Origin: Bacteriovorax sp.
GTDB lineage: Bacteria > Bdellovibrionota > Bacteriovoracia > Bacteriovoracales > Bacteriovoracaceae
Assembly: GCA_014377485.1 (NCBI GenBank)
Contig: JACMPM010000101.1
Span: forward strand, 1 to 55,899
Direction: 5' to 3'
DNA: 55,899 nucleotides
The notes beneath the pieces are model-generated. The model worked only from the letters and a program-made list of their open reading frames with translations. It did not search any database and was not told where the DNA came from. Both the position numbers and the translations under genes were made by a program. Of this stretch, positions 40,366-55,417 are shown piece after piece; within the stretch, counting starts at the first letter, position 1, and each line of letters begins with the position of its first letter.

Positions 40366-40513
40366 GAACTAATTCTTTCGATAATTGATTATAAATTTGT
40401 TCAAGTTGTAACTTTAGAAATGCAACATCAATACTTGAAGATGAGGAATTAAGCATTTCCTCTAGGTAATCTATTTTATTTTCAAGCAGGATAAGTTGTG
40501 AAGTTGAAATCAT
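40346..40513 (-). CDS. Small helical protein, unknown
   Basis: 55 residues from the ATG at 40513 (GGA 3 bases upstream); a longer frame reaches 40537. It reads ISTSQLILLENKIDYLEEML, then SIDVAFLKLQLEQIYNQL, two leucine-rich helices that could form a coiled-coil hairpin. It overlaps the 3' end of the convergent restriction gene by 20 bases. No family recognised; a chance frame cannot be excluded. Confidence 0.4.
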   Translation of the reverse strand: MISTSQLILLENKIDYLEEMLNSSSSSIDVAFLKLQLEQIYNQLSKELVPKLAFS

Positions 40514-40701
40514 TATTCCATCTCTGTGCAGGTTCATCGAATTAATATCAAATTCAATAAGTTTTTACATCAATTTTTGAGTCTTTTTATTAAAATAATT
40601 CATAAAAAATCTTACTTTTTTAAAATACTTGGTAATCACTTCAATATGTTATCTAAGCTTATCTAAAGCTTCGGCGTGTCATCGATTAGTCTATGCTGTA
40701 A

Positions 40702-41181
40702 GTAAAATTATTTACACAAAAGGCTAAGGATATTTCTGATAAATATATTGATCCACCATATACGACTGATTTTGGAATCATGTTTTTACCATTCGAAGGA
40801 ATCTACGCTGAAGTAGTTCGTAAAGCTAGTTTCCTAGAAGATCTTCAAAGAGAGTATAAAGTAATCGTTACAGGCCCCTCTACATTGGCCGCACTATTAA
40901 ACAGCCTTCAGATGGGCTTTAAAACGCTCGCAATTCAAAAAAGCAGTAGTCAGGTATGGAAAGTGTTAGGTGCAGTTAAAACGGAGTTTGAGAAGTTTGG
41001 TGGCATGCTTGAAAAGTCACAGCGAAATATCCAATTAGGCTTGAATGATTTAGATACCCTTATTGGAACTCGATCAAACATGATTCGTAGCAAGTTGAAG
41101 TCTATTGAAAGCTTATCAGAAAGTGACACAAAAATGATGCTTCCTGAAATTTTAGCGATAGATGCGGATGATGATACATAA
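40702..41181 (+). pseudogene. RmuC C-terminal remnant
   Basis: From 40702 the frame reads FTQKAKDISDKYIDPPYTTD, FGIMFLPFEGIYAEVVRK, YKVIVTGPSTLAALLNSLQM, FKTLAIQKSSSQVWKVLGAV and KTEFEKFGGML, the conserved C-terminal half of the RmuC recombination-limiting protein (usually 400-500 residues). There is no start codon before 40780 and a stop stands just upstream, so the N-terminal coiled coil is gone. It may be a fragment carried along with the island. 40538-40701 holds nothing else recognised. Confidence 0.8.
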
Positions 41182-41227
41182 AATAGTTTAATTTGAACTT
41201 TCGCAAAATATTAGTCACGATATAATA

Positions 41228-42025
41228 ATGAATCAAAATATTGCAAATATTTTCAAAAGCTGCAGAAAGTTTAATAAGCTTCAACAGACTGCAATGGCAA
41301 AGACTTTAAATATCACACAAGGAACGATTTCCAAAATTGAAGATGCTACCATGAAGATTGAAATGGAGCTTTGGTTCAAGTTTCTAGAAATCTTTAAAGT
41401 TAAAGATCCTTATTGCTTTTATTATAATTCTTTCGAAATATCTACTCAAAATAGTGCGTTTTTGGTGCAAGAGGGAAGTCCATTACTGCCAAAGTTTAAA
41501 TTTACTGATGACTTCCTATATCTTGAAGTAAAAATGATTCGCCCATTAATTGACCTGGTTCAATCTAAACATTCAGATGAGTTTGATTTATTTTTAAAAA
41601 AGAACAATTTAAAAAAAGAAATAATTTATCTTCTTAATCATCCAATCCCCTTAGAAATAATTGAGAGTTTTTTTCATTTTTTAGAAAGTATGAAAATAAA
41701 TGCTAAGACGTTGATGAGATTAAACCTAGATTTTCAATCTACTCTAGGTGAAACTATGCTAAATGGTAAAGCTCCAGAATTAAGTGATGCTTTAAATATT
41801 TTTAATCAAAGTAATAATATTTTAGATTATAATTTTATTAATAGTAATCAGTATGCAGTTTCCACAGATCTAACAAGCTTAAATTCTCTTAAAAATGATA
41901 GTTTTTTGATGGAGTATTGTCTTTTGCTGCCATTGCTTTTCTTAAAGTCAAAGATAAATCCCAATATAGCATTAGTAGAAAAAGAGATTAAAAACAACAA
42001 TACTTGGTTGATCTCTTTTCAGTAA
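41228..42025 (+). CDS. XRE-family helix-turn-helix regulator
   Basis: 265 residues. The N-terminal HTH (IFKSCRKFNKLQQTAMAKTL then ITQGTISKIEDATMK, about residues 6-45) is a clear Cro/CI-type domain. The remaining 200 residues are a helical regulatory domain without recognised motifs. It stands alone after the RmuC remnant and before the D repeat and R10; its target may be its own promoter or a neighbouring module. Confidence 0.75.
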   Translation: MNQNIANIFKSCRKFNKLQQTAMAKTLNITQGTISKIEDATMKIEMELWFKFLEIFKVKDPYCFYYNSFEISTQNSAFLVQEGSPLLPKFKFTDDFLYLEVKMIRPLIDLVQSKHSDEFDLFLKKNNLKKEIIYLLNHPIPLEIIESFFHFLESMKINAKTLMRLNLDFQSTLGETMLNGKAPELSDALNIFNQSNNILDYNFINSNQYAVSTDLTSLNSLKNDSFLMEYCLLLPLLFLKSKINPNIALVEKEIKNNNTWLISFQ

Positions 42026-42038
42026 AGTTTAAATTCAA

Positions 42039-42112
42039 GGAGGTGGACACGTCCCCCATGCCCCTATGCCGCTCGCGCTCTAGTTTGTTTCGATAAATCG
42101 AAACCTAGCTAG
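42039..42112. repeat. Composite repeat D, second copy without the B insert
   Basis: GGAGGTGGACACGTCCCCCA at the left and GCTCGCGCTCTAGTTTG followed by TTTCGATAAATCGAAA (42088-42103) at the right match 28101-28245, but the 80-base middle with the B element and an extra hairpin is absent. This gives a with/without pair for the insertion. Confidence 0.7.
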
Positions 42113-42258
42113 TATGAGAAAAAAAGGGTATGCGATCTAAAGCAGACAACCGATATAAAAGCCATCTCCCTGAAGTAATTAAAAAGTCTCAACTAAGACT
42201 AAGGCACAATATTTTATCAAGAAGCCCCACCATTTAACCAACTAGAAACTTTCCCACC

Positions 42259-42378
42259 TTCTTGTCAAATTCGTTCAGATTCTAGGAATGGCAAGCAAGC
42301 TCGAGGGAGCTTATGAATAATAAGTGACCGAGAGTGAAGGGACGGCACGACAACGAAGATGAATGAATTTCACAAGAA
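42259..42378 (+). repeat. R repeat copy 10 (R10)
   Basis: Starts TTCTTGTCAAATTCGTTCAG and ends TGAATGAATTTCACAAGAA. The second stem TTCGTTCA/TGAATGAA is unlike R2 or R6 but still paired. The apical hairpin is CTTAT-gaata-ATAAG (compensated against CTTAC/GTAAG). Three bases separate its right end from the umuC stop. About 45 bases to its left are shared with the left flank of R11. Confidence 0.92.
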
Positions 42379-42381
42379 TAG

Positions 42382-43701
42382 CTACTTCACTTTGGATTGT
42401 GTTAACACCTCGTCAATTAATGGTACTTCCCCCCAATTGGTACAATATGATGGTGTCATCATCGGCCTTTCTGCTTCAAAGTTTCCATTACCCAATCCAC
42501 AAGCTGCACTACGAATCGTATTTGGTTTATACTTCTGGTTGATCTTATCAATTGTATTCATGAGGCTAATTCTTTTTGGATCATCATCTTCATAAAAAAG
42601 AGAACTTTGATGTGAATCAATATCTTGTAATTTCTTTAAAGAAATTCCTATTTTTTTATACTCAAATTGTGGATCATAGATTGAATCTAACAATGACCAA
42701 ACAGCCTCGATAATCTTAACTGTGTCCATTGTGTAACTTGGTAAACTCATTTTTATGCTGTCACTAAACTGAGGAAGCTCAGGACTGTGAAAATCTGTAC
42801 TTAAAAACAAACCAACTTCTTTGCATAATGATCCCTGCCTTCTCATGTCTTCAGATGCAAGTGTTGCGTAGGTTGCTAATGATTGCTTAAGTAGAACAAG
42901 ATCATTTGTTTTATTTCCCAGAGTTCGGCTATGTGAAATTTCTTCTTTTTTTTCTATTGGTTCATCGATTCTGAAACATTGAACTCCTTGCAGTTCTAGT
43001 TGAATTTTTCTTCCATTAATCGTAAGAAGCTTTTGAATTTTTTCTGGAGATGGATAGTCCCTGAATTGTTTTGCATTGTTAATTCCAAGCTTTCTTAATT
43101 GTTTCCCTCGTGATTTACCTATTCCCCATAATTTTTCAACCGGAGTCCTTTCTAAGGCCCAATCTAGATTTAATTCATTGATTTCAAAAACTCCCTTATA
43201 CATAGGATTCTTTTTTGCAATTTTCACCGCAATTTTAACTAGTGTTATATTTGGCGCAAAAGCAATACATCCTTCTAGACGAGTGTGCATATAAACCGCA
43301 TTAACAACTTCTAGTCCAAACTTTAATAAGCTCTCCGTTGGTATATGGCTTACATCGAATAATCCTTCATCAATTGAATACACAAATAAGTGTGGAGTAA
43401 ATTTTCTTAATTCTGTAAAAAGTAGACGAGAGAAATATGCGTATGTCTCAAAGTTTGCGGAGAAAACATAAACGTGATTTCCTTTTGCTACTTTTTTTAT
43501 TTCCCAAGCAGTCGTTCCAATATCAATTCCTAGATCTTTTGCTTCTTTCGAAGCGGCGATTACAATTCCACCAGTGTTGCCGAGAATGGCAATAGGCTCT
43601 CCTCGAATTTCTGGTCTGAAGACTCCTTCAACCATAGCGTAACAGCCATTCACATCAAAAATAGCAATGCACTTTTTGCTGAATAAACTATCAGTAAGCA
43701 T
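42382..43701 (-). CDS. umuC: Y-family DNA polymerase, UmuC-like
   Basis: 439 residues. Catalytic acidic residues: Asp16 in IAIFDVNGCYAMVE and Asp111-Glu112 in FVYSIDEGLFDVS. The helix-hairpin-helix PVEKLWGIGKSRGKQLRKLG and the C-terminal little finger follow. As pol V core it copies past DNA lesions at the cost of mutations; plasmid-borne copies help survive DNA damage and transfer. It overlaps the UmuD-like gene by one base, and its stop codon is 3 bases from R10. Length is normal for UmuC. Confidence 0.9.
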   Translation of the reverse strand: MLTDSLFSKKCIAIFDVNGCYAMVEGVFRPEIRGEPIAILGNTGGIVIAASKEAKDLGIDIGTTAWEIKKVAKGNHVYVFSANFETYAYFSRLLFTELRKFTPHLFVYSIDEGLFDVSHIPTESLLKFGLEVVNAVYMHTRLEGCIAFAPNITLVKIAVKIAKKNPMYKGVFEINELNLDWALERTPVEKLWGIGKSRGKQLRKLGINNAKQFRDYPSPEKIQKLLTINGRKIQLELQGVQCFRIDEPIEKKEEISHSRTLGNKTNDLVLLKQSLATYATLASEDMRRQGSLCKEVGLFLSTDFHSPELPQFSDSIKMSLPSYTMDTVKIIEAVWSLLDSIYDPQFEYKKIGISLKKLQDIDSHQSSLFYEDDDPKRISLMNTIDKINQKYKPNTIRSAACGLGNGNFEAERPMMTPSYCTNWGEVPLIDEVLTQSKVK

Positions 43702-44258
43702 TAGTTCCCTTTTATTGAAATATGAATTGAGCTAACGACAGCAATGAAATAATAATCGTCTGGATTTAAAACAACAGGTTTGTATTTTGGATTTAATGAG
43801 AAAGCTACGACTTTATTATTTATGATCTTAATTTGGTTGCAGTAGGTTTTGTTTCTATAGCGATAGACACACACTTCACCACTGGCATGTTGCTCACAAA
43901 ATTTCAGGAGTACATATCCATTCATAGGAATTAATGGACTCATGTTATCAGTCGTAATCTTGTAAAATATGTCTCCAGGAAACTTTTCATCAAGCGATAC
44001 ACGCTGATTGTGGTTTTGGTTGCTGATTCCAAAAAGTTGTTTGCTTGTGTCCACTTTCTTTTTTTGTTCAGCTTCAACGTCCGCATTCCTTTGAAGATCA
44101 ACAAACTCTTTTACGGCCTGATCCCTGCGGTTGAAATATTCTCGCTCTCTACCCATTAGAACAGGGCCGGCGTAATATTCACTAGTGGCAGACTCTTCGT
44201 TATATTCATTTTTAAATTCTTCTGGGTCGTAAATGTATTCTTGGTTTGTTTTACTCAT
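43701..44258 (-). CDS. UmuD-like S24 protein without catalytic Ser and Lys
   Basis: 185 residues. The C-terminal fold fits LexA/UmuD peptidases (FPGDIFYKITTDNMSPLIP, GYVLLKFCEQHASGEVCVYR, YCNQIKIINNKVVAFSLNPK). The usual GDSM nucleophile motif reads TDNM, with Asn105 in place of Ser, and the lysine of the TVKRL motif appears replaced by Asn (about residue 141, YCNQI). It should therefore not self-cleave. The N-terminal 90 residues are an unusual acidic extension. It is translationally linked to UmuC, so a permanent structural partner of the polymerase is likely. Confidence 0.75.
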   Translation of the reverse strand: MSKTNQEYIYDPEEFKNEYNEESATSEYYAGPVLMGREREYFNRRDQAVKEFVDLQRNADVEAEQKKKVDTSKQLFGISNQNHNQRVSLDEKFPGDIFYKITTDNMSPLIPMNGYVLLKFCEQHASGEVCVYRYRNKTYCNQIKIINNKVVAFSLNPKYKPVVLNPDDYYFIAVVSSIHISIKGN

Positions 44259-44413
44259 AATCGTATATTGCGTAATTTTTGCGTAAGTATCAAGAGGGAA
44301 AAATCTTTCAATGTGTTTTTAGTTCTGCTTATTAGAAATATCAGTCACTTGCTTTGTGCCTGAAAAGATATATTTTAGGTAAAATCTGTTGTGTTCCTAT
44401 CAATGATGTATGA

Positions 44414-44425
44414 TACAATATTGTA
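44414..44425. promoter_or_regulatory. Palindromic operator of the second NTase/HTH pair
   Basis: TACAATATTGTA, perfect, 20 bases upstream of the NTase ATG. Like the dyad at 15193-15230 it sits at the promoter of an NTase/HTH gene pair, so repression by the module's own HTH protein is likely. Between it and the divergent UmuD-like gene, TTACGCAA occurs twice as a direct repeat (minus strand, near 44270-44290). Confidence 0.55.
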
Positions 44426-44445
44426 AGTTACAGTATGAGGTTAGA

Positions 44446-44979
44446 ATGATTACTAGTGCAATTGAAGAATTTGATCAATATTTAAATGATAAGTCACTTA
44501 AGTTTGAAGCGATTATTATTGGGGGAGCGGCTCTCTCGATCTTGCACATTATTACTCGAATGACTGAAGATGTAGATTGCATTGATCCTGTAATCCCTGA
44601 CGAAATAAAAAAAGCTAGTGCAGAATTCATAAAACTAAATCCAAAGCACGGTTTAAATCCAGAAAAATTTTTAAACAATGGGCCGATTTCAATTATTGAA
44701 ACATTACCTGATGGTTGGAAAGGAAGAACGCAATTAATTTTTCAAGGAAAGGCCCTAACTTTTTTTACTCTTGGACGGATCGATTTATTAAAAACAAAAC
44801 TGGATGCCATGGTTCATCGTGGTAGAGATATGGAAGATGTTGTAGCGATGAAGCCGACAGAAGCTGAGCTTGTAGAATGCAAAGAGTGGGTTTTGAATGC
44901 TGATGGAGGAGAACACTGGCCAGAAATGGTAAAAGAATCTTTTGATGAATTAAGGAGTAAATTAAATGGAAACTCCTAA
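44446..44979 (+). CDS. Nucleotidyltransferase-fold protein (DUF6036-like), module 2
   Basis: 177 residues from the ATG at 44446 (TGAGG 5 bases before); upstream codons run through the operator. FEAIIIGGAALSIL and TRMTEDVDCID give the GG and ExD motifs; TFFTLGRIDLLKTKLDAMVH is the conserved Asp/Lys region. It matches module 1 (15249-15791) in layout: NTase first, overlapping (14 bases) an HTH-ended second gene. A toxin-antitoxin or defence role is likely but not shown. Confidence 0.72.
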   Translation: MITSAIEEFDQYLNDKSLKFEAIIIGGAALSILHIITRMTEDVDCIDPVIPDEIKKASAEFIKLNPKHGLNPEKFLNNGPISIIETLPDGWKGRTQLIFQGKALTFFTLGRIDLLKTKLDAMVHRGRDMEDVVAMKPTEAELVECKEWVLNADGGEHWPEMVKESFDELRSKLNGNS

Positions 44980-45616
44980 CTTAAATACAGCACTTTCTCG
45001 AATTGGGTTTAGAATTGCTTCAAATGATTTAGATAATAGTACTGAATATTATGTTGATCTAGAAGAAACTCTTATTAAGGCCCTATATGATGCTAGAGAT
45101 GATGGACGATTAATGTCTTTGATTTTTAGCTGGCAAGAAATGAATGGTGAATTCTTAATTGCGGAAAAATTTTTTAAGGTAAGAGATCGTTACCAAAAAA
45201 TTCTTGGAGTGAATCATCTTATCAACGCATTTTGTGCTTATTCAGTTCACCTAGGATTACATAAATATAAGAAGGGAAGCATTCGACTTAAAAATGAAAA
45301 ATATTTGTTGCGTGAAGCTCCAGCAGCAGTTAAGTCAAGTGGTGCAGTTCCATGGCTTAAAGAAATTAATATAATTTGTCCTATTTCTCAATTTATATTA
45401 AAAAGCGAATCAGTTATGCCTCCTAAAGAGCTTGTAAAATTTAATCTTCAATTTAAAAATAGATTAATTTATGGAGCAAATTGGAGAGCAGATATTATTA
45501 CGGCGATACAGCTAGGAATTGAAAATCCTTCAAAAATAAAAGAATTGCTTGGTTGTTCTTATGAGCCAGCAAATAGGATTTTTAAGCAGTATTCGATGGC
45601 TATGAGCAAGATTTAA
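44966..45616 (+). CDS. HTH-ended partner of NTase module 2
   Basis: 216 residues. The C-terminal segment WRADIITAIQLGIENPSKIK and ELLGCSYEPANRIFKQY reads as a helix-turn-helix. A middle region (LKEINIICPISQFILKSESV) is similar in position, not sequence, to the module 1 partner. It is probably the DNA-binding regulator or antitoxin. The interval 45617-45787 after it contains only the 45-bp flank shared with R10. Confidence 0.65.
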   Translation: METPNLNTALSRIGFRIASNDLDNSTEYYVDLEETLIKALYDARDDGRLMSLIFSWQEMNGEFLIAEKFFKVRDRYQKILGVNHLINAFCAYSVHLGLHKYKKGSIRLKNEKYLLREAPAAVKSSGAVPWLKEINIICPISQFILKSESVMPPKELVKFNLQFKNRLIYGANWRADIITAIQLGIENPSKIKELLGCSYEPANRIFKQYSMAMSKI

Positions 45617-45787
45617 TAACTAGTCAGAAGAATGAAGCCTTTGTATGTGCTATCTATATCTATGAAATAACTCCAAATCACTAAAATAACCCTCATTACA
45701 CAAGTACTTACAAGTCTCAATATTTAAGACTCGTCTAAACAAATATATCAAGAAGACTCATAAATTAACCGACTAGAAACCATCCCA

Positions 45788-45984
45788 CCTGCTTGTCAAA
45801 TTCGCTCAGCTTCTAGAAATGGCAAGCAAGCTCGATGGAGCTTATGAATTATTCTCAGGATTGAGAATAATGTCGCCGCAGGCGCTCCAAAGGAGCAAGC
45901 CTCAGGACGAGGCGCAGACAATAGTATGAGATCGACATTGAAGGGACGGTATGACAACGAAGATGAATGAATTTCACAAGTAGG
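45788..45984 (+). repeat. R repeat copy 11 (R11) with a nested B element
   Basis: Outer arms CCTGCTTGTCAAATTCG and TGAATTTCACAAGTAGG, with private outermost pairs CCTG/TAGG. The apical hairpin is split by about 75 bases (45850-45925) of B element: ATTCTC/GAGAAT hairpin, GTCGCCGCAGGC, GCTC/GAGC, GCCTC/GAGGC. The right arm contains TAGGA and ends 4 bases before the ATG of the WYL gene, so it may provide the ribosome site. Confidence 0.9.
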
Positions 45985-45988
45985 ACCA

Positions 45989-46963
45989 ATGAAAGATTAT
46001 ACAAAGACGGATGCATGTCTCTTATTAATCCAAACCATCTGTAAGGCTCCACGCCTGACCCTAACCGATAAGACCGTTCGTGAGATCCTTGGAGACCCTT
46101 CTAAGGCACAATACCATAAGCTGATTAATGAGCTGACGACCGATGTAGGGGATAGGAAAGCGATACTTTTAAAGCAGAAAGACTCTGAGGGAAATATTCA
46201 GTTTCAATTGAATCATTGTGACTGGGTTAATTTCATTGAAGGGACTCAGGAAATTCATTTCATTCTTAAATCTTATAAGGAGATGGGACATCTATTTCCC
46301 AAGATTGATGTTGATGGGGTTTCTGTTCATGCAAAAAATATCGATAGGAGATTTCACTATTTAAGTCAGGTGAAAGTAAAGGATTCAACTGAATCTGTTG
46401 CTGGTGTCCAAACACACCTGGAGTCTTTGATAAAGGCGTTGGTAGGCAATAGACGTATTTTTATTAAGTACAAAGATAATGATAAAAATAAAGAAAAGAC
46501 CGCAACAGAGATATTCCCTTTAACACTTGTTCAATACCGAGATGATTTATACCTGGTGGCCTATAAAACAGAAATGGGAGTTGAGAATCTAAGACACTAT
46601 AAGGTTTCACGAATTTTAGAAATTATTGAGTCGAAATCTGGCTTTAAATATCCAAACGAAGCAAAGTGGAATCCAAAAGAATATTTTAAAAACAATTCCG
46701 GTATCTTTGTTGGAAACGAGAAGAAGGCAGTATTTAGAATTTATAATGAATCAAAAAAAATTCTCTCAGAAAAAAGCTTCTTTAATTCTACGATCATTAA
46801 TCAAATGAAAGATTATGATGAGTACCAATGTGTTTATTCGAATGTAGAAGAATTTATGGGCTTCTTATTCATCTATGGCCAGGACGTGGAGATAGTAGGA
46901 GATGCAGTTTTGAAAAAGGCGTTCAGAGAAAAAGCTGAAAAAATTTTATTGCGAAATAAATAG
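45989..46963 (+). CDS. WYL-domain transcription regulator
   Basis: 324 residues: N-terminal winged helix (DACLLLIQTICKAPRLTLTD, VREILGDPSKAQYHKLINEL), WYL domain around residues 150-215 (NRRIFIKYKDND, ATEIFPLTLVQYRDDLYLVA, ENLRHYKVSRILEI), then a WCX-like C-terminal domain ending KKAFREKAEKILLRN. WYL domains sense nucleic-acid or nucleotide ligands and often regulate phage-defence loci. It starts 4 bases after R11 and precedes the protease-like gene and the HNH-AAA-DnaB operon, which it may control (inference). Confidence 0.85.
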   Translation: MKDYTKTDACLLLIQTICKAPRLTLTDKTVREILGDPSKAQYHKLINELTTDVGDRKAILLKQKDSEGNIQFQLNHCDWVNFIEGTQEIHFILKSYKEMGHLFPKIDVDGVSVHAKNIDRRFHYLSQVKVKDSTESVAGVQTHLESLIKALVGNRRIFIKYKDNDKNKEKTATEIFPLTLVQYRDDLYLVAYKTEMGVENLRHYKVSRILEIIESKSGFKYPNEAKWNPKEYFKNNSGIFVGNEKKAVFRIYNESKKILSEKSFFNSTIINQMKDYDEYQCVYSNVEEFMGFLFIYGQDVEIVGDAVLKKAFREKAEKILLRNK

Positions 46964-46965
46964 CA

Positions 46966-47106
46966 TGACGCTATTTATTGTCACCGCAAGGTTTGTGCCT
47001 GCTGCAAAAGACGAAAGTGTTTTGAGGCAAAGCTCCCTTGACGTTAAAGTCTAATAAAGACTTTTGGCGGCAATGATCTAGACAAGTACGATGCGAGCGC
47101 AACAAA
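46966..47106 (+). repeat. Diverged long copy of the B element
   Basis: ATAGC-atgac-GCTAT hairpin, then TTATTGTCACCGCAAGG at the left and AAGTACGATGCGAGCGCA ending ACAAATA at the right. The right part is nearly the reverse complement of 28124-28147. About 80 bases in between contain further small hairpins (AAAGTC/GACTTT). It fills the gap between the WYL gene and the convergent protease-like gene. Confidence 0.5.
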
Positions 47107-47176
47107 TAATGAATATGCAAAGTTTGTGATTTTAATAAATACTTAATTAGAGTTGTAGAGTTTGTTTATTTATGAA

Positions 47177-48730
47177 TTATGGTTTTTTAATATAAATTAG
47201 TTTGTTTATAAATAATTTACTCTCTAAAGTCGAATTGGCTTCTATAAGTTCTTTTCGAGTGCATTCGAATAATGGGGAAAATTTTTCACCCGAAAATGAT
47301 GGCTCCCAACAAATTAACCGATCTCTATCCAAAAAATCGATTAGCACAAAATGTTCATCTTCAACATTACCATAAATATTTTTATTTGGTCTTTTGGCTG
47401 AAATTTGAGGAAATTTGTGCCAAGAAATCTTGGCCATAAATATCCCATTTAGTGAATGTGCCATATCGTTAAAATTAGTAATCCTAGCATCTTTAACTCC
47501 ATGCTTGTTTAATAAATCTAATATTTGGTCAAAAATTTTTTCATATGAATTTTCAAGTGAATTTGTATTAATTGTATTTTTAAACGTAGTCATTAATTTT
47601 AAAAAATCTGCCCTATCATTTACAATAAACTTTTTTAAAATATGTAATATCGCAATAGAGCAAGATAGAGCACACTCGTATTCAAGCTGGAAAAAAATAC
47701 TTTTATCTAATATTGTTCCTTTAAATAGATTCTTAAAGTTTTTCTGAGGTAATATATGTAATCTCATACTGCGATCATCTTCAAAACTAATGGGCGGAGT
47801 CGATTTATTATAGTCATCTAAAGTTATACCATTTGCTTCTAATTCGGGATAAAGAAAATTTTTCAGAGTACTTTTAGCAAATTTTATTCTATTTTCAAAA
47901 ACAGTCACAAATGCTGGATTAATTTTACGAGAATCCAAATTCTCATCTTGATTTTGTTTTAGATATTTTTGAGTTAATGAGTCTGACTTAATTAATTCTT
48001 CTAATGAATGTATTTCTCTGATTAATAAAGTTTGTGAACTAGACATATTCCAAAAAAGTTCTTCGTTTTCTTTTAAAATTTCTTTAATCTCATTTATAGT
48101 ATCAATATGAAATTTATTACAAATTAGATTATTTTCTTCAAGGAATGATCTTTTCCATTTCATTCTTTTTTTATTCTTTAATACTTCATAGTGGGAAAAA
48201 AAATTATTATGATTGAAAATATTATCAGTACTTAACAAGCATGGAACACTTAAAATAAGTTCACTTGCAATTACACCAGCTCCAGTTAAGCGGTATCCCA
48301 TTTCACTCTTTGTCCTTTTAGATGTATCTGATTTATAATTTCTTTTAAAAATTCTATTTGGTTCATAAACAATACCGTACTCTTGTTCCCATTTTTTAAA
48401 ACTTGATGATTTTACAAAATTTGGGCATTTAAATTGTTCTCGCCGAGATAGGTCACGAATCTTATTTATTATTGTTCTACTTATCTCTCCTGAAGGAGAA
48501 TAAATTGGCCGATCATGATCCAAAATCCAAGAATGTTCACTTCGATCATTTATTAATTCTTCGATTCCGGTGGGAAAACCATCTAGGATTTGTTTTGAAA
48601 GTTTTAAAATTACTTGTGCCTGATCATAATCAATTCCATTATCTCGAGATAAATTAAGTCCTAGGGTACCATAAAGACCAAACCAGAATTGCCAATCACG
48701 TTTACTGGGAAGAAATGCACGTTTTGTCAT
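47177..48730 (-). CDS. Large protein with a possible C39-like cysteine peptidase domain
   Basis: 517 residues, no signal peptide. The N-terminal 160 residues may contain a winged helix (EMGYRLTGAGVIASELIL). The C-terminal third shows FQLEYECALSCSIAILHIL, resembling the QxxxxDCGxACLAMIL active-site helix of C39 (papain-like) peptidases with Cys353 as nucleophile, and DEHFVLIDFLDRDRLICWEP with His460 followed by an acidic residue, as in HxVVLxxxxxxxxxxxDP. No known family for the whole length. It is divergent from the HTH-led operon. The peptidase call is motif inference. Confidence 0.55.
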   Translation of the reverse strand: MTKRAFLPSKRDWQFWFGLYGTLGLNLSRDNGIDYDQAQVILKLSKQILDGFPTGIEELINDRSEHSWILDHDRPIYSPSGEISRTIINKIRDLSRREQFKCPNFVKSSSFKKWEQEYGIVYEPNRIFKRNYKSDTSKRTKSEMGYRLTGAGVIASELILSVPCLLSTDNIFNHNNFFSHYEVLKNKKRMKWKRSFLEENNLICNKFHIDTINEIKEILKENEELFWNMSSSQTLLIREIHSLEELIKSDSLTQKYLKQNQDENLDSRKINPAFVTVFENRIKFAKSTLKNFLYPELEANGITLDDYNKSTPPISFEDDRSMRLHILPQKNFKNLFKGTILDKSIFFQLEYECALSCSIAILHILKKFIVNDRADFLKLMTTFKNTINTNSLENSYEKIFDQILDLLNKHGVKDARITNFNDMAHSLNGIFMAKISWHKFPQISAKRPNKNIYGNVEDEHFVLIDFLDRDRLICWEPSFSGEKFSPLFECTRKELIEANSTLESKLFINKLIYIKKP

Positions 48731-48814
48731 AATAACATTATCGACAGAAGTTATGAAATATAAAGAAATTAATTTCCTTAAATTAAATTATCAGGAAAAT
48801 ATTTTCTCAATACT

Positions 48815-48842
48815 TGACATGGTGAACATTTTTTGCTATTAT
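48815..48842 (+). promoter_or_regulatory. Sigma70-type promoter of the HNH-AAA-DnaB operon
   Basis: TTGACA at 48815-48820 and TATTAT at 48837-48842 with a 16-base spacer. Transcription would start near 48849, so the HTH gene's start codon should lie downstream of that point. Confidence 0.6.
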
Positions 48843-49243
48843 GTAAAAATAAGCAATTAACTTACTTCCAAGGATTGAAGTTAAGAATTTTCAAGGAGTT
48901 AGAGACTTTAGGAGTTTATATAAAACCTAAGCCTCATGCCGAATCCTTTGCTCACAAGCAAACCCATAACATCCGCTTCTACCAGGATGAATGTCGTCGG
49001 TCCTATATCCACAAACCCACTGCACTCATACAAGCTCGTCTTGATCTTGGTCTAACTCAGATTGAAGCCGCAAATGCAGTCAAACTAACTCGTCAGAGAT
49101 ACGGCAATATTGAAAAGTCGAAAGCCGGAATAAAACTGCCTAGGGCTGAATCAATAGCATTATGCTTGGAAGCAAAAATAGAACAACTATTTCGCAAAGA
49201 CGAAAAAAGTAATCGTTACTTTGCCAAAAAATTCGAAGAATAA
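48833..49243 (+). CDS. XRE-family HTH protein
   Basis: Up to 136 residues; the frame is open from a TTG at 48833, which overlaps the predicted -10 box, so the true start is probably internal (for example the TTG at 48875). The C-terminal half is a Cro/CI-type HTH: TALIQARLDLGLTQIEAANA, VKLTRQRYGNIEKSKAGIKL, PRAESIALCLEAKIEQLF. No ATG is available in the first 100 codons. As first gene of the operon it probably regulates it. Confidence 0.7.
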   Translation: MLLCKNKQLTYFQGLKLRIFKELETLGVYIKPKPHAESFAHKQTHNIRFYQDECRRSYIHKPTALIQARLDLGLTQIEAANAVKLTRQRYGNIEKSKAGIKLPRAESIALCLEAKIEQLFRKDEKSNRYFAKKFEE

Positions 49244-49310
49244 AATTAAAACAAAAAAATAAAAAGTTTGTTTTTAAAATTAATAAACAGTCTAAAAACT
49301 GGAGATCAAA

Positions 49311-49571
49311 ATGTTAAAAAAAAATTCATCAAAAAAAGTGATTCAAAACAAAGATTCAAAAACAGAAAATTTCCTTACTCTTACAATACATAAACGGGAC
49401 TCAATGTTTTTCCATGTCCAAATAAGTGACTTCTCGTCGCTCGATGCTATGACCAAGGCAGAAATTCTAGAAATTGAGGAAAAATACAAAGGCAGCTTTA
49501 ATTTAATATTTAAAACTAAAGCATTAGAAAAGATGTTTAACGTCCATGTAGACGATCCTCAGTATTTATAA
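49311..49571 (+). CDS. Small protein in the defence-like operon
   Basis: 86 residues, GGAG 6 bases before the ATG. After a basic N-terminus (KKNSSKKVIQNKDSK) comes a compact beta/alpha stretch (FLTLTIHKRDSMFFHVQISD, then KAEILEIEEKYKGSFNLIFK). No family recognised. It lies 67 bases after the HTH gene and 21 bases before the nuclease gene, so it is likely co-transcribed and could be an adaptor or inhibitor. Confidence 0.6.
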   Translation: MLKKNSSKKVIQNKDSKTENFLTLTIHKRDSMFFHVQISDFSSLDAMTKAEILEIEEKYKGSFNLIFKTKALEKMFNVHVDDPQYL

Positions 49572-49592
49572 AATTAGTAGTTGAGGTAAAAA

Positions 49593-50936
49593 ATGAAAAA
49601 ACCAAATGACACTACTCTAAAAAGTGAAATCAAATTACCCATTGAACTTATTCCTTATACATCTTGGGGAAATAATCCACGTTCGATTTCTCCAAAAGAT
49701 TGGAAAAAATTAAGGTTAGAGTGTTACGAAAACGCAAAAAGAGTATGCGAGATTTGTGGTGACATAAAAAATACCGGAAAAGTGGAATGCCATGAAATTT
49801 GGGAATTTAATGATATAAAAAAAGTGCAAACACTTATCGGACTTATCGCCTTGTGTCCGCCATGTCACCAGGTGAAACATATAGGTCTTGCAAATAAAAT
49901 GGGTCGTGCCCAAAATGCAACTGAACATCTCGCTGAAATTAACAACTGGACAATAGATGAGGCAAATAATTATGTAAGTGAATCCATTAAAAAGTGGAAA
50001 GAAAGAAGTCGATATAGTTGGAAGTTAGACCTTGCTTGGATAAAGCGAAAGGGTATTAAGGTAAAAAATGAGAAGAATAGAACTCCTGCAGAATTAGTAA
50101 TCCTACTAGAGGCAATCCAAAATAATGATAATAAGTTAGTAAAATATTTACTAACTAAGAACAATAAATACAACTTTGCTGTTGATGAGAAAGGTAATCA
50201 AATATTACACATGGTGGTTAGGTCAAAAAACCTAAAAGTTACGAAATTATTTCTAAATGATCCGAATTTTATTAAAATGATCGACCAAGGAAACAAGGCT
50301 GGCATAACACCATTAATGCTATCCTGCCAGCTCGGAAGTAAGGAGATTGTTAAATTATTAGTAAATGCAGGTGCAAGTACTTCAAAGAAATGTAAGTATA
50401 AAAAATCTATTCTACATTATGTAGCCTTAAGCAATAATTTTGAAACATTTAAATATGTACACTCAAACTATTGTAAAAACTTAACTAATGAATCTGACTT
50501 TAAAGACGCATTATTTTTCCATAGAATTATGAGTAGTGAACAATTTTTTTCATCTAGCCTTCCAAGATCTATAAGGTTTGAGAGAAAAAAGATATTAGAA
50601 TATTCATTAGAATTCCTTACAAAAGATCAAGTAATTAAAAAAGATAAATTCGGAAAAACATTCCTTCACTGCATAGCATATCTAGGAGACAGAAAAACAA
50701 TTTTAAAAACATTAGAGAAAGGTGGGCTTGATACTATAGATTCCTTTGATAAATACGGAAAAACTCCAATCAATGAAGCGGCCCTTGGGTTGAATATCGA
50801 AGCTATAAAAACTCTTTTAGAGAAAAATGCAAAATTTAGGCATAAAACCAATTCAGGCGAAACAGCTTATGAAATTATAAAACAAAATATGGGCATAGAA
50901 ACAGCTGAAGAAGTATTTGGTACATATCTTAATTGA
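49593..50936 (+). CDS. HNH nuclease-ankyrin repeat fusion
   Basis: 447 residues. Residues 24-150 are an HNH endonuclease domain: TSWGNNPRSISPKDWKKLRL, zinc cysteines C52-x2-C55 (CEICG), catalytic block ECHEIWEF (His67), second pair C88-x2-C91 (LCPPCHQVKH) and His96. From about 168 to the end are ankyrin repeats: NQILHMVVRSKNLKVTKLFL, GITPLMLSCQLGSKEIVKLL, GKTPINEAALGLNIEAIKTL. The ankyrin part probably binds a partner or a phage protein and controls the nuclease. All metal and catalytic residues look intact. It leads into the AAA+ genes (27-base gap). Confidence 0.82.
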   Translation: MKKPNDTTLKSEIKLPIELIPYTSWGNNPRSISPKDWKKLRLECYENAKRVCEICGDIKNTGKVECHEIWEFNDIKKVQTLIGLIALCPPCHQVKHIGLANKMGRAQNATEHLAEINNWTIDEANNYVSESIKKWKERSRYSWKLDLAWIKRKGIKVKNEKNRTPAELVILLEAIQNNDNKLVKYLLTKNNKYNFAVDEKGNQILHMVVRSKNLKVTKLFLNDPNFIKMIDQGNKAGITPLMLSCQLGSKEIVKLLVNAGASTSKKCKYKKSILHYVALSNNFETFKYVHSNYCKNLTNESDFKDALFFHRIMSSEQFFSSSLPRSIRFERKKILEYSLEFLTKDQVIKKDKFGKTFLHCIAYLGDRKTILKTLEKGGLDTIDSFDKYGKTPINEAALGLNIEAIKTLLEKNAKFRHKTNSGETAYEIIKQNMGIETAEEVFGTYLN

Positions 50937-50963
50937 AATTTAAACAAAGGGACTCTAATACTA

Positions 50964-52214
50964 ATGAAAAAAAAATCAAATTACCTACCCAAGAATCTTT
51001 CCTTTAACGATCTAAATGAATGTTTAATCTTTCTGGGACACGATCGCCAAAAGAATAAAGCTGATGCTCAAAGCAAGATGGAAGATGTTGAAGCTGGGCT
51101 TAGTGATGATGAATATGAAGTGCTGATTGACTACATAAATGCAATGGAGATGATGGAACACAATTTTAAACTAAAAGAAATTATTCCATTCTGTAAAAGA
51201 GAAGATTTAATAAAACTTGCTAAAAAAATCTATCTTATAGGTTACATGGGTGTTGCTGATCTAGATATATCAAGCCACTTAACTCAACTTGAAATTGCAG
51301 CAGACTTTGAAAACTTAATTGATGACATCAATGATAAAGACATTATTGATCTATTAATTGAAATCGATGATGAGCATGACGAAATTGTTCTGAATGAATT
51401 CATTGTACCTGATGATGTGTTGAAAAGTTACGTTCTTCACAAGATAGGTATTAAAACTAAAAAGCAAAGTGGGGATGAAATAAACTTATCCACTAACTAT
51501 AATCTAGATCTTTTAAATATGGATAGCTTGTGCCCCCACGTCCATATTGAAGAATTAAAAAAAGTACATCAATACCTAAAAAGACCAGGCCCTAAGAAGT
51601 TTTATAACTGGGTAGTACTTTTTGAAGGTGCTCCAGGCACTGGGAAAACAGAGTATGCAAAGTTTTGTGCAAAAACGATGGAGCAACATTTTGTATACAC
51701 TTCTGCAGGAGGTCTTTTATCTGGATTTCATGGTGAATCAGAAGCAAATATTAAGAAACTTTTTGACGAAGCAGCAAGAAAAAATGCAATTATTTTTATC
51801 GACGAAGCAGATTCACTTGGGAGTAATAGAGCAAATGCGAGCCAAAGCTTCGAAACAAGTATTGTTAATGAGCTTCTTATACAGATCGAAAAATACCCAG
51901 GGATTGTCATTTTATCTACGAACATGACTGATAATTTAGATCCTGCCCTAATTGATAGGAGTATTCAGAAGATTACTTTTAACTATTTATCTAAAGAACA
52001 AGCACAAATAGCTTTTAATGTTTTTTTTGAGAGAAAGCTAACAGCATCTGAGCGCGAGAAGCTCAATAATGTAAAAAACTTGAGTCTTCGTAATTTCAGA
52101 GTAGTAATGCAGAAAACGTTTTTTACTGAAGAAGCAGACAATCTTAAATTAATAAAACTTTTACAGCTTGAGGTAGATTTTAGAACTAGGATCGAAGATT
52201 TAGGTGGCAAGTAA
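50964..52214 (+). CDS. AAA+ ATPase of the HNH-AAA-DnaB operon
   Basis: 416 residues. The first 190 are a helical domain of unknown family. AAA+ core: Walker A EGAPGTGKTEYA at about 220-231, Walker B AIIFIDEADS at about 275-284, then the signature NASQSFETSIVNELL, sensor 1 VILSTNMTDNLDPAL and an arginine near the finger position (IDRSIQKI). It resembles FtsH/proteasomal-type and ClpX-like classical AAA proteins. The C-terminal fusion partner in the next gene shares the NASQS signature, so the two AAA modules are related and could form a mixed ring. Confidence 0.82.
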   Translation: MKKKSNYLPKNLSFNDLNECLIFLGHDRQKNKADAQSKMEDVEAGLSDDEYEVLIDYINAMEMMEHNFKLKEIIPFCKREDLIKLAKKIYLIGYMGVADLDISSHLTQLEIAADFENLIDDINDKDIIDLLIEIDDEHDEIVLNEFIVPDDVLKSYVLHKIGIKTKKQSGDEINLSTNYNLDLLNMDSLCPHVHIEELKKVHQYLKRPGPKKFYNWVVLFEGAPGTGKTEYAKFCAKTMEQHFVYTSAGGLLSGFHGESEANIKKLFDEAARKNAIIFIDEADSLGSNRANASQSFETSIVNELLIQIEKYPGIVILSTNMTDNLDPALIDRSIQKITFNYLSKEQAQIAFNVFFERKLTASEREKLNNVKNLSLRNFRVVMQKTFFTEEADNLKLIKLLQLEVDFRTRIEDLGGK

Positions 52215-52351
52215 TGCGTAAAATTCTGGGTAATTAAGTTAAGGGAAAACCATTTGCCCAACCTGATAGGCCAAATTTCGCAAATATACTAACAAGTCTC
52301 ATTTTTTAATACATTTCTAAGTTATAAGCTACAAAACATAAAAGGTAAATT

Positions 52352-54088
52352 ATGGATTCAATAACAGAATCATTAAAAGAAGTTCTTAAAAACTTACAAG
52401 ATAAATTAAAATCATCAGATAATTTTAAAGGTCTTAAAACAGGTTATAAGGGACTCGATGAATGGCTTCAGGGATTAAAAAATGGAAATATAATAATCAT
52501 TGGATCCAGACCAGCAATGGGAAAAAGCTCGCTGGCCATCAGTATTGCCTTTCAGGCCTGTACTCTTTCAAAACGTCCAGTCATCTATTTTTCAAATCAA
52601 TTAAGTACTAATGAAATAGCGATGCGAATGCTTCTTGGTGTTGCCAAGGTTGATAATAAAAAAGTGCATAATAAAAAATTCTTAGAAGAAGACTTAAGAC
52701 AAATAGGAGCGGCTACAAAAGAAATAGCCGAACTACCAATTTTTTTAGATGACTATAACTCTTTAAATGTTGAAGAAATTATAAGCACATGTCGTAAGAA
52801 AAAAAATGAAGAAGATTTAGGTTTAATAATTATCGATAATCTTCAGGATATTAAAAGCAATGATTCATTAGAGTCCAATGAACAAATTTCTAAAAATTTA
52901 AAATTATTAAAGGCAATGGCGCGAGAGCTAGATTGCCCCGTTATCATATTATCTCAGGTTGGCCGGGGAGTTGAAGAGCGCTACAATAAACGTCCATATC
53001 TAGCAGATCTTAAAGATTCAGGAATGATAGAGCAATTGGCCGATGTAGTTTTGTTTATCTATCGTGAAGATCTCTATAATCCAAAATCAAGAGAAAAGGG
53101 CCTTGCGGAAATAATCATTGCAAAAAATCGGCATGGGGAGACTGGGATAGTAAAATTATTGTGGAAGGGAAGCTATTCAAGCTTTGAGGAACTAAGCCAA
53201 GGTAAAAAGCCACCATCTATTCCAGAAGATTCAAATGAACAAAATCCACCAACGGAATCACAATTTGTACCACCAAGTTTAACAGATTTTATAAGAATGC
53301 CAAAAAAGAATGTTACAAATACAGGAATCCAATTAAAAAAAATTAACTCAAATTATATGATTGATGGTCTAAGCGCTGACCATGATTTAAAAGTTGTAAC
53401 CGAAAAATTGGTTAAATATAATAAGAAGATGATAAGTGGAAAAAGTGACGTAAGTCTAAATATCATATTGAGCGGTCCTCCGGGCTCAGGAAAAACTGAA
53501 TACGCTAAGTATTTATCCCAAGAATTAAAAAAAGGGTTTATTTTCAAGCAAGCAAGTGATCTAAAAAGTAAGTGGGTGGGTGAGGGCGAAAAAAACATCA
53601 AAAAAGCCTTTATGGAGGCCCAGGAATCTAAAAGCATTCTATTTATTGATGAGATCGATACATTCTTACATTCAAGAGATAATGCATCTCAAAGTTACCA
53701 AATTAGTGAGGTTAATGAATTCCTTATTTGCTTAGAGAACTTCAAAGGAATTTTTATGTGTGCCACAAACTCAACTGAGCGAATGGATCCCGCAGCTTTA
53801 AGAAGATTTCTTTTTAAGATTAAATTCGACTTTCTAGATTCAACAGGTGCTTTGAAGTTCTATAATCATTTCTATAATGAATATGATGCTTCTGAATTAA
53901 GTATTCAAGAATTAGCAGATCTAAAACAAATTAAGAATTTAACTCCAAGTGATTTTAATACAGTTAAGAGAAAACTAATATTTGAAGACGAAATTAATCA
54001 CAATCAAATATTGAACTTACTTAAACAAGAAGTGGCCCATAAGAAATTTCACACTAAGGGAGTGATGGGTTTGGGAGTTAATATATAG
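52352..54088 (+). CDS. DnaB-type helicase domain fused to an AAA+ ATPase
   Basis: 578 residues with two ATPase modules. Residues 25-285 are the RecA-like DnaB helicase domain: LKTGYKGLDEWLQGLKNG, Walker A GSRPAMGKSSLA near 51-62, VIYFSNQLSTNEIAMRMLLG, Walker B LGLIIIDNLQDI, VIILSQVGRGVEERYNKRP and DSGMIEQLADVVLFIYRED. The DnaB N-terminal primase-binding domain is absent. Residues 330-560 are an AAA+ module: SGPPGSGKTEYA near 373, SILFIDEIDT, NASQSYQISEVNEFLIC and ATNSTERMDPAALRRF. This fusion is unfamiliar to me. A diverged copy of its last 48 bases follows R12. Confidence 0.85.
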   Translation: MDSITESLKEVLKNLQDKLKSSDNFKGLKTGYKGLDEWLQGLKNGNIIIIGSRPAMGKSSLAISIAFQACTLSKRPVIYFSNQLSTNEIAMRMLLGVAKVDNKKVHNKKFLEEDLRQIGAATKEIAELPIFLDDYNSLNVEEIISTCRKKKNEEDLGLIIIDNLQDIKSNDSLESNEQISKNLKLLKAMARELDCPVIILSQVGRGVEERYNKRPYLADLKDSGMIEQLADVVLFIYREDLYNPKSREKGLAEIIIAKNRHGETGIVKLLWKGSYSSFEELSQGKKPPSIPEDSNEQNPPTESQFVPPSLTDFIRMPKKNVTNTGIQLKKINSNYMIDGLSADHDLKVVTEKLVKYNKKMISGKSDVSLNIILSGPPGSGKTEYAKYLSQELKKGFIFKQASDLKSKWVGEGEKNIKKAFMEAQESKSILFIDEIDTFLHSRDNASQSYQISEVNEFLICLENFKGIFMCATNSTERMDPAALRRFLFKIKFDFLDSTGALKFYNHFYNEYDASELSIQELADLKQIKNLTPSDFNTVKRKLIFEDEINHNQILNLLKQEVAHKKFHTKGVMGLGVNI

Positions 54089-54121
54089 AGTCCCTAGCTC
54101 GTGCATAGCACGGCGTTCCCC

Positions 54122-54318
54122 TAATTGTTGTCAAATGAACTCAAATTCAAGAAACAAGGAACGAAGCTAAGGAGCATACGATCAGTATGTGATCGAAGCT
54201 GAGCTGACGAAGTGACGCCAAAAATTCTCAGGATAGAGAATTTTGTCGCCAAAGGCGCTCTATGAGCGAGCTTCATGGATGAAGCGAAGACAAAATTGGG
54301 TTTATTTCACAATAATTA
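54122..54318 (+). repeat. R repeat copy 12 (R12) with a nested B element
   Basis: Outer arms TAATTGTTGTCAAATGAAC and GGTTTATTTCACAATAATTA. The apical hairpin GCATAC-gatca-GTATGT is intact. A B element is inserted nearer the right arm (54226-54296): ATTCTC/GAGAAT, then TTGTC closing with GACAA around GCC/GGC, GCTC/GAGC and GCTTCA/TGAAGC hairpins, a small cloverleaf. The right end is 3 bases from a second copy of the DnaB-AAA gene's tail. Confidence 0.92.
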
Positions 54319-54321
54319 AAT

Positions 54322-54375
54322 AAGAAATTTCATACTAAAGGAATAGTTGGATTGGGAATTACACATGGAAACTGA
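54322..54375 (+). pseudogene. Remnant of a second DnaB-AAA gene 3' end
   Basis: Reads KKFHTKGIVGLGITHGN and stop, against KKFHTKGVMGLGVNI and stop at the end of the intact gene (54041-54088). The similarity begins 3 bases after R12. Its last bases overlap the ATG of the following gene at 54365. Confidence 0.8.
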
Positions 54376-54955
54376 AGACTCGTATAAAACCATCTGGGGT
54401 AAAAAAATAAAAGGAAATGAATGTGTTTTATTAAGAGGATTTATCTATAAGAAAGACGGTCAGTTAAATTCAATTTTTCATAGGTCACATGACTTTACTT
54501 ATTTTGAAAGATTCAAGTCCGATGTTAAAAAGTCAGCTGAAGTTCTTAATGGGAAATATTACCGCGGGGGAATGTCGGGGCCTAACGATTTTCAAGATGA
54601 AGAGGTAAGAAATAAACCAATTTGTCCCATTCCCTTAGAATATCTAGATCCTCCAATTGCACTTCTATGTAAATTATTGCCCATATATGGGATAAGCACG
54701 GTATACAGCTGTGGTGGCCATAAAGAAGACGAGAGCTGTCCAACGATTAGCTTTAGAAGTAACCTAGATCACATAAAAGCTAAGCATCTGTTCCATGAAG
54801 TCCTTCAGAATGATTTTTCAAAGGTCATTTTTTCAACAGGAAGGGGATGGATGGGTTTGAAAGTCGAATTCTTAATGGATAAGCATAATGAAGAATCCTA
54901 CTTTGAGATGAATTGGTTTATTCATAAATTAGCAAAAAACCTACTGAAAATTTGA
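54365..54955 (+). CDS. Hypothetical protein, phage or plasmid type
   Basis: 196 residues from the ATG at 54365; codons upstream belong to the remnant. Notable are KYYRGGMSGPNDFQDEEVRN, a proline-rich ICPIPLEYLDPPIALLCKLL and GISTVYSCGGHKEDESCP, where SCGGH with a nearby Cys could bind a metal. The pattern GxxTxxSCxGH recurs in small phage-encoded proteins I have seen, without known function. It lies directly downstream of the R12 remnant and may once have been the gene following a DnaB-AAA gene. Confidence 0.6.
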   Translation: METEDSYKTIWGKKIKGNECVLLRGFIYKKDGQLNSIFHRSHDFTYFERFKSDVKKSAEVLNGKYYRGGMSGPNDFQDEEVRNKPICPIPLEYLDPPIALLCKLLPIYGISTVYSCGGHKEDESCPTISFRSNLDHIKAKHLFHEVLQNDFSKVIFSTGRGWMGLKVEFLMDKHNEESYFEMNWFIHKLAKNLLKI

Positions 54956-55072
54956 ATAAGTGTATTTAGAAGTAAATAATTTAATAATCTTACAAAGGGG
55001 AGAAGTCTCATTTTTTGAGTTACCACACTGATAAATTATCCAATCAATATATTGGTGAGATGGAGTGTTTAT

Positions 55073-55417
55073 ATGACTAATTATGAATTATTATGTGAAA
55101 AAATCGAAAATCTAGAACAATTAGTAATCGACTTTAAGAGTCTTGCTGAAGATATTAAAAAATCAAATCTTACAGAAATACTTCATGGGTCGACACCTAT
55201 AATTGCTGATCAAATTCTCAGTGAAGATTTGATGTATGCTGATGCTTTAAAATTTGTAGTTGAACATAAATCTGCAAGTATTTCGTTACTTCAAAAAAAG
55301 TTTGGAATTGGGTATCAAAGAGCTTCAATGCTGATCTCAAAATTAGAAACAAGGGGAGCTATCGGCCCCGTAAATGGTTCAATGCCTAGAAAAGTTTTGT
55401 TGTTTAAAAGTAGATAG
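55073..55417 (+). CDS. Stand-alone FtsK gamma-type DNA-binding protein
   Basis: 114 residues from the ATG at 55073 (GGAG 8 bases before). After an N-terminal coiled coil (LLCEKIENLEQLVIDFKSLA) the C-terminal 65 residues form an FtsK gamma winged helix: YADALKFVVEHKSASISLLQ, KKFGIGYQRASMLISKLETR and GAIGPVNGSMPRKVL. In FtsK this domain reads KOPS sites and steers the translocase to dif. Without a motor, this protein could act as a regulator, or direct plasmid DNA to a host machine. Confidence 0.85.
   Translation: MTNYELLCEKIENLEQLVIDFKSLAEDIKKSNLTEILHGSTPIIADQILSEDLMYADALKFVVEHKSASISLLQKKFGIGYQRASMLISKLETRGAIGPVNGSMPRKVLLFKSR

What the first reader, a model, noticed from the sequence alone, without database searches (positions are those of the whole stretch)
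52352..54088. DnaB helicase domain fused to a AAA+ ATPase
Two complete ATPase sites of different classes (RecA-like near residue 51, AAA+ near 373) in one chain. Helicase loaders such as DnaC are AAA+ proteins acting on DnaB, so this could be a helicase carrying its own loader-like module, though the NASQS-type AAA is closer to unfoldase-type families.
Basis: partly seen in the sequence, partly recalled or inferred. Interest (0 to 1): 0.7.

Follow-up and report, generated by a model that had tools for sequence, protein, structure and literature searches.

The report
Helicase ring fused to unfoldase ATPase
A Bacteriovoracales bacterium carries, in a defence-gene neighbourhood, a protein that joins the ring part of a DNA-unwinding helicase, whose key catalytic residue is replaced, to an apparently intact protein-unfolding motor; this joining was found nowhere else in the collections searched, and its function is untested.

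Summary
The fusion is real as sequence: one 578-aa frame, DnaB_C (27-280, E=1.5e-80), a disordered linker (~284-325) and an AAA domain (371-493, 1.6e-30). "Two complete ATPase sites" is not right. The AAA site is intact. The helicase site has Gln83 where E. coli DnaB has E262 (published as its catalytic glutamate) and B. stearothermophilus DnaB E241, while the P-loop lysine, Mg aspartate and arginine finger are kept. It also lacks the DnaB N-terminal (primase-binding) domain. The AAA domain is of the classic CDC48/p97/IetA type with an unfoldase-style pore loop (KWVGE), not evidently DnaC/DnaI type. Its relatives are 735-800-aa double-AAA proteins, scattered across phyla, often beside WYL regulators and nucleases. 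The helicase half groups with stand-alone NTD-less DnaB_C proteins of Bacteriovoracales, and unfused DnaB_C and AAA genes lie side by side elsewhere in the same genome. The fusion was seen only here: 129 relatives, 368 genomes of the phylum, phages, plasmids and viral contigs showed none. Best reading: an accessory, probably anti-mobile-element machine in which a hydrolysis-weak DnaB-type ring anchors an active AAA unfoldase to DNA or a replisome. "Helicase carrying its own loader" is less likely. Function is untested; interest moderate.

The parts
52352..54088 (+). DnaB_C-AAA fusion protein, 578 aa
   Evidence: single open frame; Pfam DnaB_C and AAA
52352..52429 (+). N-terminal segment with the DnaB linker-type helix (helix at residues 4-20); no DnaB N-terminal domain precedes it
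   Evidence: AF2 model; alignment starts at BstDnaB ~163-169; same start shared with L029 and L042
52430..53191 (+). DnaB C-terminal RecA-like ATPase domain (residues 27-280)
   Evidence: PF03796 1.5e-80; pLDDT mostly above 90
52502..52528 (+). Walker A of helicase domain, GSRPAMGKS (51-59)
52598..52600 (+). Gln83 (CAA) in place of the H1a catalytic glutamate
   Evidence: maps to BstDnaB E241 / E. coli DnaB E262; 63 of 67 relatives have E; PMC8213410, PMC9020082, PMC3814363
53201..53326 (+). Disordered Pro/Ser/Gln-rich linker (about residues 284-325)
   Evidence: pLDDT under 50 over 284-350 in the full-length model; sequence
53462..53830 (+). Classic AAA domain (residues 371-493), with Walker A 375-382, pore loop KWVGE 407-411, Walker B 429-434, sensor 1 N473, Arg fingers 484-485
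   Evidence: PF00004 1.6e-30; motif positions; fold
50964..52214 (+). Upstream paralogous AAA protein, 416 aa, related to the fused AAA domain (37%); first Arg-finger position is Asp331
   Evidence: PF00004 1.6e-27
49593..50936 (+). HNH nuclease plus ankyrin repeats, 447 aa, 27 bp upstream of the AAA gene; probable operon member
   Evidence: phrog_5200 HNH 4.3e-45; Ank repeats
45989..46963 (+). WYL-domain regulator of the same neighbourhood
   Evidence: PF13280 3.4e-11; 62% identical WYL gene beside a DnaB_C gene in G010 (L042)

Best explanation
An accessory, probably anti-phage or anti-mobile-element protein. A DnaB-type ring without the primase-binding domain, and with a catalytic E-to-Q change, binds ATP and single-stranded DNA (or joins a replisome) but turns over slowly, and so acts mainly as an anchor. 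The tethered classic AAA domain is the working motor and pulls on polypeptides bound to that DNA, such as phage replication or recombination proteins, possibly in mixed rings with the co-encoded AAA paralogue (50964-52214). Shown by sequence: the fusion, the missing N-terminal domain, E-to-Q, the intact classic AAA site with aromatic pore loop, and the neighbourhood. Inferred: rings, slow hydrolysis, DNA anchoring, polypeptide remodelling, defence role.
For: DnaB_C and AAA in one frame. Q83 at the catalytic Glu with Walker A K58, Mg Asp162, K258 and Arg finger R260 kept; E262 is the published catalytic glutamate of E. coli DnaB (PMC8213410; PMC9020082). AAA fold nearest CDC48/p97, Rix7, NVL, FtsH, PAN (Z 20-22; sequence profile), with KWVGE pore loop and complete site. 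DnaB_C half groups with stand-alone NTD-less DnaB_C proteins (98/90). DnaB_C and double-AAA genes lie together in own contig C35 and in G043 and G002. AAA relatives sit near WYL genes in 27 loci and DUF2779 in 8, and beside AddB-like and UvrD/RecB-like genes. AAA is closest to IetA in PADLOC (3.5e-27). The window also holds an MmeI-type RM gene and a DUF6036 nucleotidyltransferase.
Against: Defence is inferred from neighbours only. The fusion occurs in one genome, so no comparison of fused orthologues is possible. E-to-Q might not abolish turnover in this background. The DnaB_C clade contains long branches (L030, L031), so its exact joins are unsure. Stand-alone clade members mostly keep the Glu, so an inert ring is not a clade trait.
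Confidence: 0.4

Rival explanations
1. Dominant-negative or decoy DnaB: the hydrolysis-weak DnaB_C domain mixes into, or mimics, DnaB rings of the host, a phage or a plasmid, blocking or baiting replication; the AAA part disassembles or recycles the trapped complex.
For: E-to-Q keeps the ring and DNA residues; identity to family DnaB proteins 45-50% over the domain; NTD missing.
Against: No evidence of mixing. Its phylogenetic group is a separate accessory lineage; most stand-alone members keep the Glu.
Confidence: 0.2
2. Both motors are active: a helicase or translocase that unwinds DNA while the AAA module strips bound proteins ahead of or behind it.
For: Most SF4 motifs are kept; AAA intact.
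Against: Catalytic glutamate replaced by Gln; the mostly conserved Asp at position 229 is Leu.
Confidence: 0.13
3. Helicase carrying its own loader: the AAA ring opens and loads the DnaB ring as DnaC does.
For: The AAA is attached to the C-terminal face of DnaB, where DnaC docks (recalled knowledge).
Against: Classic AAA clade, not initiator/DnaC; no helicase-binding domain; a DnaA/DnaC-type protein stands separately in the unfused cluster on C35; outside Bacteriovoracales, AAA relatives have no DnaB within about 9 kb.
Confidence: 0.08
4. A recent, non-functional accident: two neighbouring accessory genes fused by deletion, decaying in one strain.
For: Found once only; helicase catalytic residue lost; unfused neighbours exist in the same genome.
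Against: Frame open over 578 codons; nearly all other key residues of both sites kept; terminal branch of the DnaB_C half not unusually long (0.71, the median).
Confidence: 0.12
5. Assembly error joining two genes.
For: Draft genome of 147 contigs; fusion seen once.
Against: In-frame junction with a coding, linker-like sequence; similar G+C in both halves (0.34 and 0.32); upstream AAA paralogue and flanks continuous. Reads could not be checked.
Confidence: 0.04

Closest known systems
DnaB replicative helicase, C-terminal domain (PF03796)
   Same: Walker A, Walker B Asp, H3/H4 motifs, Arg finger, linker-type helix; up to 50% identical to DnaB of relatives
   Different: No N-terminal domain; catalytic Glu is Gln; AAA domain added; in a defence-like neighbourhood rather than a replication locus
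DnaB_C-only phage or accessory proteins (phrog_243; L029, L030, L031 here)
   Same: NTD-less DnaB_C; nearest phylogenetic group (98/90)
   Different: None of those seen is fused to AAA; L029 and L031 keep the catalytic Glu (L030 has Asn there)
Double-AAA ATPases (phrog_10401; L028 to L041 and about 70 loci in other phyla)
   Same: Second AAA domain is homologous (33-50% identity) with the same conserved tail
   Different: First AAA domain and N-terminal helical region replaced by DnaB_C
IetA of the IetAS anti-phage system
   Same: Closest PADLOC AAA match (3.5e-27)
   Different: Far below the NCBIfam cut-off (84 against 510 bits); no subtilase among the scanned neighbours
DnaC/DnaI helicase loaders
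   Same: AAA+ proteins that act on DnaB from its C-terminal side (recalled)
   Different: Different AAA clade; no helicase-binding domain

Membership tests
DnaB replicative helicase | DnaB_C RecA-like domain | tested here: met
   PF03796 270.7 bits
DnaB replicative helicase | N-terminal primase-binding domain | tested here: not met
   protein starts at the linker helix; alignment to BstDnaB begins at 163-169; TIGR00665 298.6 bits, below the 385.25 cut-off
DnaB replicative helicase | H1a catalytic glutamate | tested here: not met
   Gln83 at E241/E262
Classic AAA proteins (CDC48/FtsH/PAN type) | AAA domain with Walker A, DE, sensor-1 N, two Arg of the SRH, aromatic pore loop | tested here: met
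DnaC/DnaI/IstB helicase loaders | initiator-clade AAA+ core | tested here: inconclusive
   PF01695 26.0 bits (cut-off 24.1) over 369-445 only, against PF00004 106.7; 70 columns, probability 8% with a DnaA/DnaC-type protein; best PDB sequence matches are CDC48-type
DnaC/DnaI/IstB helicase loaders | N-terminal helicase-binding domain before the AAA | tested here: not met
   the segment before the AAA is DnaB_C plus a disordered linker
IetAS anti-phage system | IetA ATPase at family cut-off | tested here: not met
   NF042959 84.3 bits against 510
IetAS anti-phage system | adjacent subtilisin-like IetS | tested here: not met
   no subtilase match among the scanned ORFs 45989-55417; the contig ends at 55899
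Anti-phage defence systems in general | protection against phage | not testable with these tools
   needs an infection assay

The most novel reading that the evidence does not exclude
A natural 'DNA-clamped unfoldase': a DnaB ring with a built-in E-to-Q mutation, frozen on single-stranded DNA, positions a p97-like AAA ring that extracts or unfolds proteins of invading replisomes; a two-ring architecture in one chain not described in the papers or collections searched here.
Probability: 0.22. Interest if true: 0.8.

Novelty: new variant of a known kind. Interest (0 to 1): 0.52.

Why it matters
The fusion links two accessory gene families of unknown role: NTD-less DnaB_C proteins and CDC48-like double-AAA proteins found across phyla near WYL regulators and nucleases. 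If they act together, the fusion points to ssDNA or the replisome as the place where this widespread AAA family works. The natural E-to-Q change resembles the substitution biochemists use to trap such motors in the ATP-bound state, so it gives an easily tested prediction.

Tried and rejected
Genome-contig scan with the single fusion protein found no relative. Viral-contig scan with the AAA domain found none; with the alignment it found double- or single-AAA proteins but no fusion. Phage and plasmid tblastn: 1345 and 2321 records match, none covering 80% of the query. A joint alignment of both halves misaligned the DnaB rows onto the AAA domain, so the halves were modelled apart; the full-length model has poor confidence for the AAA part for lack of AAA rows, and the relative placement of the domains cannot be read from it. 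'order' and 'class' searches returned the same 129 genomes as 'family'. Paper searches on DnaB-AAA fusions, PcfJ with DnaB, IetAS with subtilisin, and DUF2779 gave no description of this architecture. Promoter and terminator counts in the region do not exceed shuffles, so operon limits are not settled. DnaC-type folds are absent from the top 50 rows of the fold search, which does not exclude them.

Full report
WHAT IS THERE. Window ORF 52352-54088 (+) encodes 578 aa in one open frame, with an AAAGG just before the ATG. Pfam finds DnaB_C at 27-280 (1.5e-80) and AAA at 371-493 (1.6e-30). Between them lies a Pro/Ser/Gln-rich stretch of low model confidence. The halves have like G+C (0.34 and 0.32). 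Upstream are a 416-aa AAA paralogue (50964-52214; 37% to the fused AAA) and, 27 bp before that, an HNH-ankyrin protein.

THE HELICASE HALF. phmmer aligns residues 9-282 with DnaB from about its linker helix on; the DnaB N-terminal domain is absent. In the ungapped first block of the alignment residue 83 falls on BstDnaB E241 (11 pairs with 169, so 83 pairs with 241), and by the same count on E. coli DnaB position 262 (21 pairs with 200; that alignment was not printed). In E. coli DnaB, E262 is named the catalytic glutamate (PMC8213410) and the putative catalytic base (PMC9020082); the H1a Glu is the catalytic base in related SF4 enzymes (PMC3814363). Here it is Gln. Among 67 distinct DnaB_C rows with a residue there, 63 have E, 2 D, 1 N, 1 G, none Q. 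It is not a single-base slip in an otherwise standard motif: FSLEM reads FSNQL. K58, D162, R205, K258 and R260 are kept.

THE AAA HALF. All catalytic features are present. Sequence profiles and folds place it in the classic AAA clade: CDC48/p97, Rix7, NVL, FtsH, PAN (Z about 20-22, rmsd mostly 2.5-3.6 over 220-240 residues; 221 of 290 residues modelled with pLDDT of 90 or more). It has a KWVGE pore loop of the kind classic AAA protein translocases use (recalled knowledge). Comparison with a DnaA/DnaC-type protein of the same genome gives only the Walker A-B stretch.

RELATIVES. The fused AAA is homologous to the second AAA of double-AAA proteins, mostly 735-800 aa. These occur sporadically: 12 of 129 relatives, the window's genome included, and 80 best loci in Lentisphaerota, Fibrobacter, Spirochaetota, Desulfobacterota, Burkholderiales and others. 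Across about 95 loci, a WYL-type regulator recurs in 27, an RtcR-like protein in 10 (named from sequence by eye) and DUF2779 in 8. Some Bacteriovoracales loci also have AddB-like PDDEXK and UvrD/RecB-like genes. Outside Bacteriovoracales none of the scanned AAA loci has a DnaB_C gene nearby.

LINK BETWEEN THE HALVES. In the same genome, contig C35 (L028) has, on one strand, a DnaA/DnaC-type protein, a full DnaB (450 aa), a double-AAA (733 aa; its second AAA is 48% identical to the fused one) and a DnaB_C-only protein (268 aa). In G043 a DnaB_C-only gene lies about 2.3 kb from a double-AAA gene, and in G002 a short DnaB_C-like gene lies 0.4 kb away. In the tree, the fused DnaB_C groups with the stand-alone DnaB_C proteins of G043, G046 and G029 (98/90), not with chromosomal DnaB; two of these are long branches. 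The C35 DnaB_C-only protein is instead sister to the C35 DnaB, so NTD loss probably happened more than once. G010 (same genus) has a DnaB_C gene with the same start beside a 62% identical WYL gene, cut by the contig end. So fusion of two co-located accessory genes is plausible.

UNIQUENESS. No second fusion was found among 129 family genomes, 368 phylum genomes (AAA profile; listed frames are double-AAA or single-AAA sized), phages, plasmids, viral contigs or the 80 GTDB loci.

HOST. L102 is a named record (Bacteriovoracales bacterium CSBr16_179) with the same length and match position as contig G105:C68, a genome of the window's family; hence the host is placed in Bacteriovoracales.

MECHANISM. 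Shown: anatomy, E-to-Q, intact AAA, neighbourhood. Inferred: the DnaB_C part anchors on ssDNA or a replisome in an ATP-bound state while the AAA remodels proteins, as part of an anti-mobile-element function (confidence 0.4). A decoy or dominant-negative role, two active motors, loader action, accident and misassembly are ranked as rivals. No activity has been tested.

Noticed in passing
L028 (own genome contig C35) 4924-11254, minus strand: An extra helicase cluster: DnaA/DnaC-type protein, second full DnaB (450 aa), double-AAA protein, NTD-less DnaB_C (268 aa) and a 185-aa protein without Pfam, PADLOC or PHROG match.
   Followed up: partly
window 49593-50936 (+): HNH nuclease domain joined to ankyrin repeats in one 447-aa protein.
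   Followed up: no
window 55052-55417 (+): Stand-alone FtsK gamma (DNA-binding winged helix) domain in a 121-aa protein, without the motor.
   Followed up: no
window 37552-46963: Island-like run: MmeI-type restriction-modification protein, XRE regulator, peptidase S24/UmuD-like and DNA-polymerase (phrog_1268) pair, DUF6036 nucleotidyltransferase, WYL regulator.
   Followed up: partly
window 47177-48730 (-): 517-aa protein with no Pfam, NCBIfam, PADLOC or PHROG match.
   Followed up: no
L029 7909-9908 and L030 8011-9929: NTD-less DnaB_C genes adjacent to PcfJ-domain proteins in two genomes of the family.
   Followed up: partly
L030 9102-9929: Another NTD-less DnaB_C protein in which the H1a Glu position holds Asn (FSLNEP).
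   Followed up: no
loci L037, L089, L092, L094, L095, L098, L116, L118, L123, L150: Double-AAA genes near a protein that looks like RtcR (RNA-repair regulator; named by eye from sequence, not scanned).
   Followed up: no
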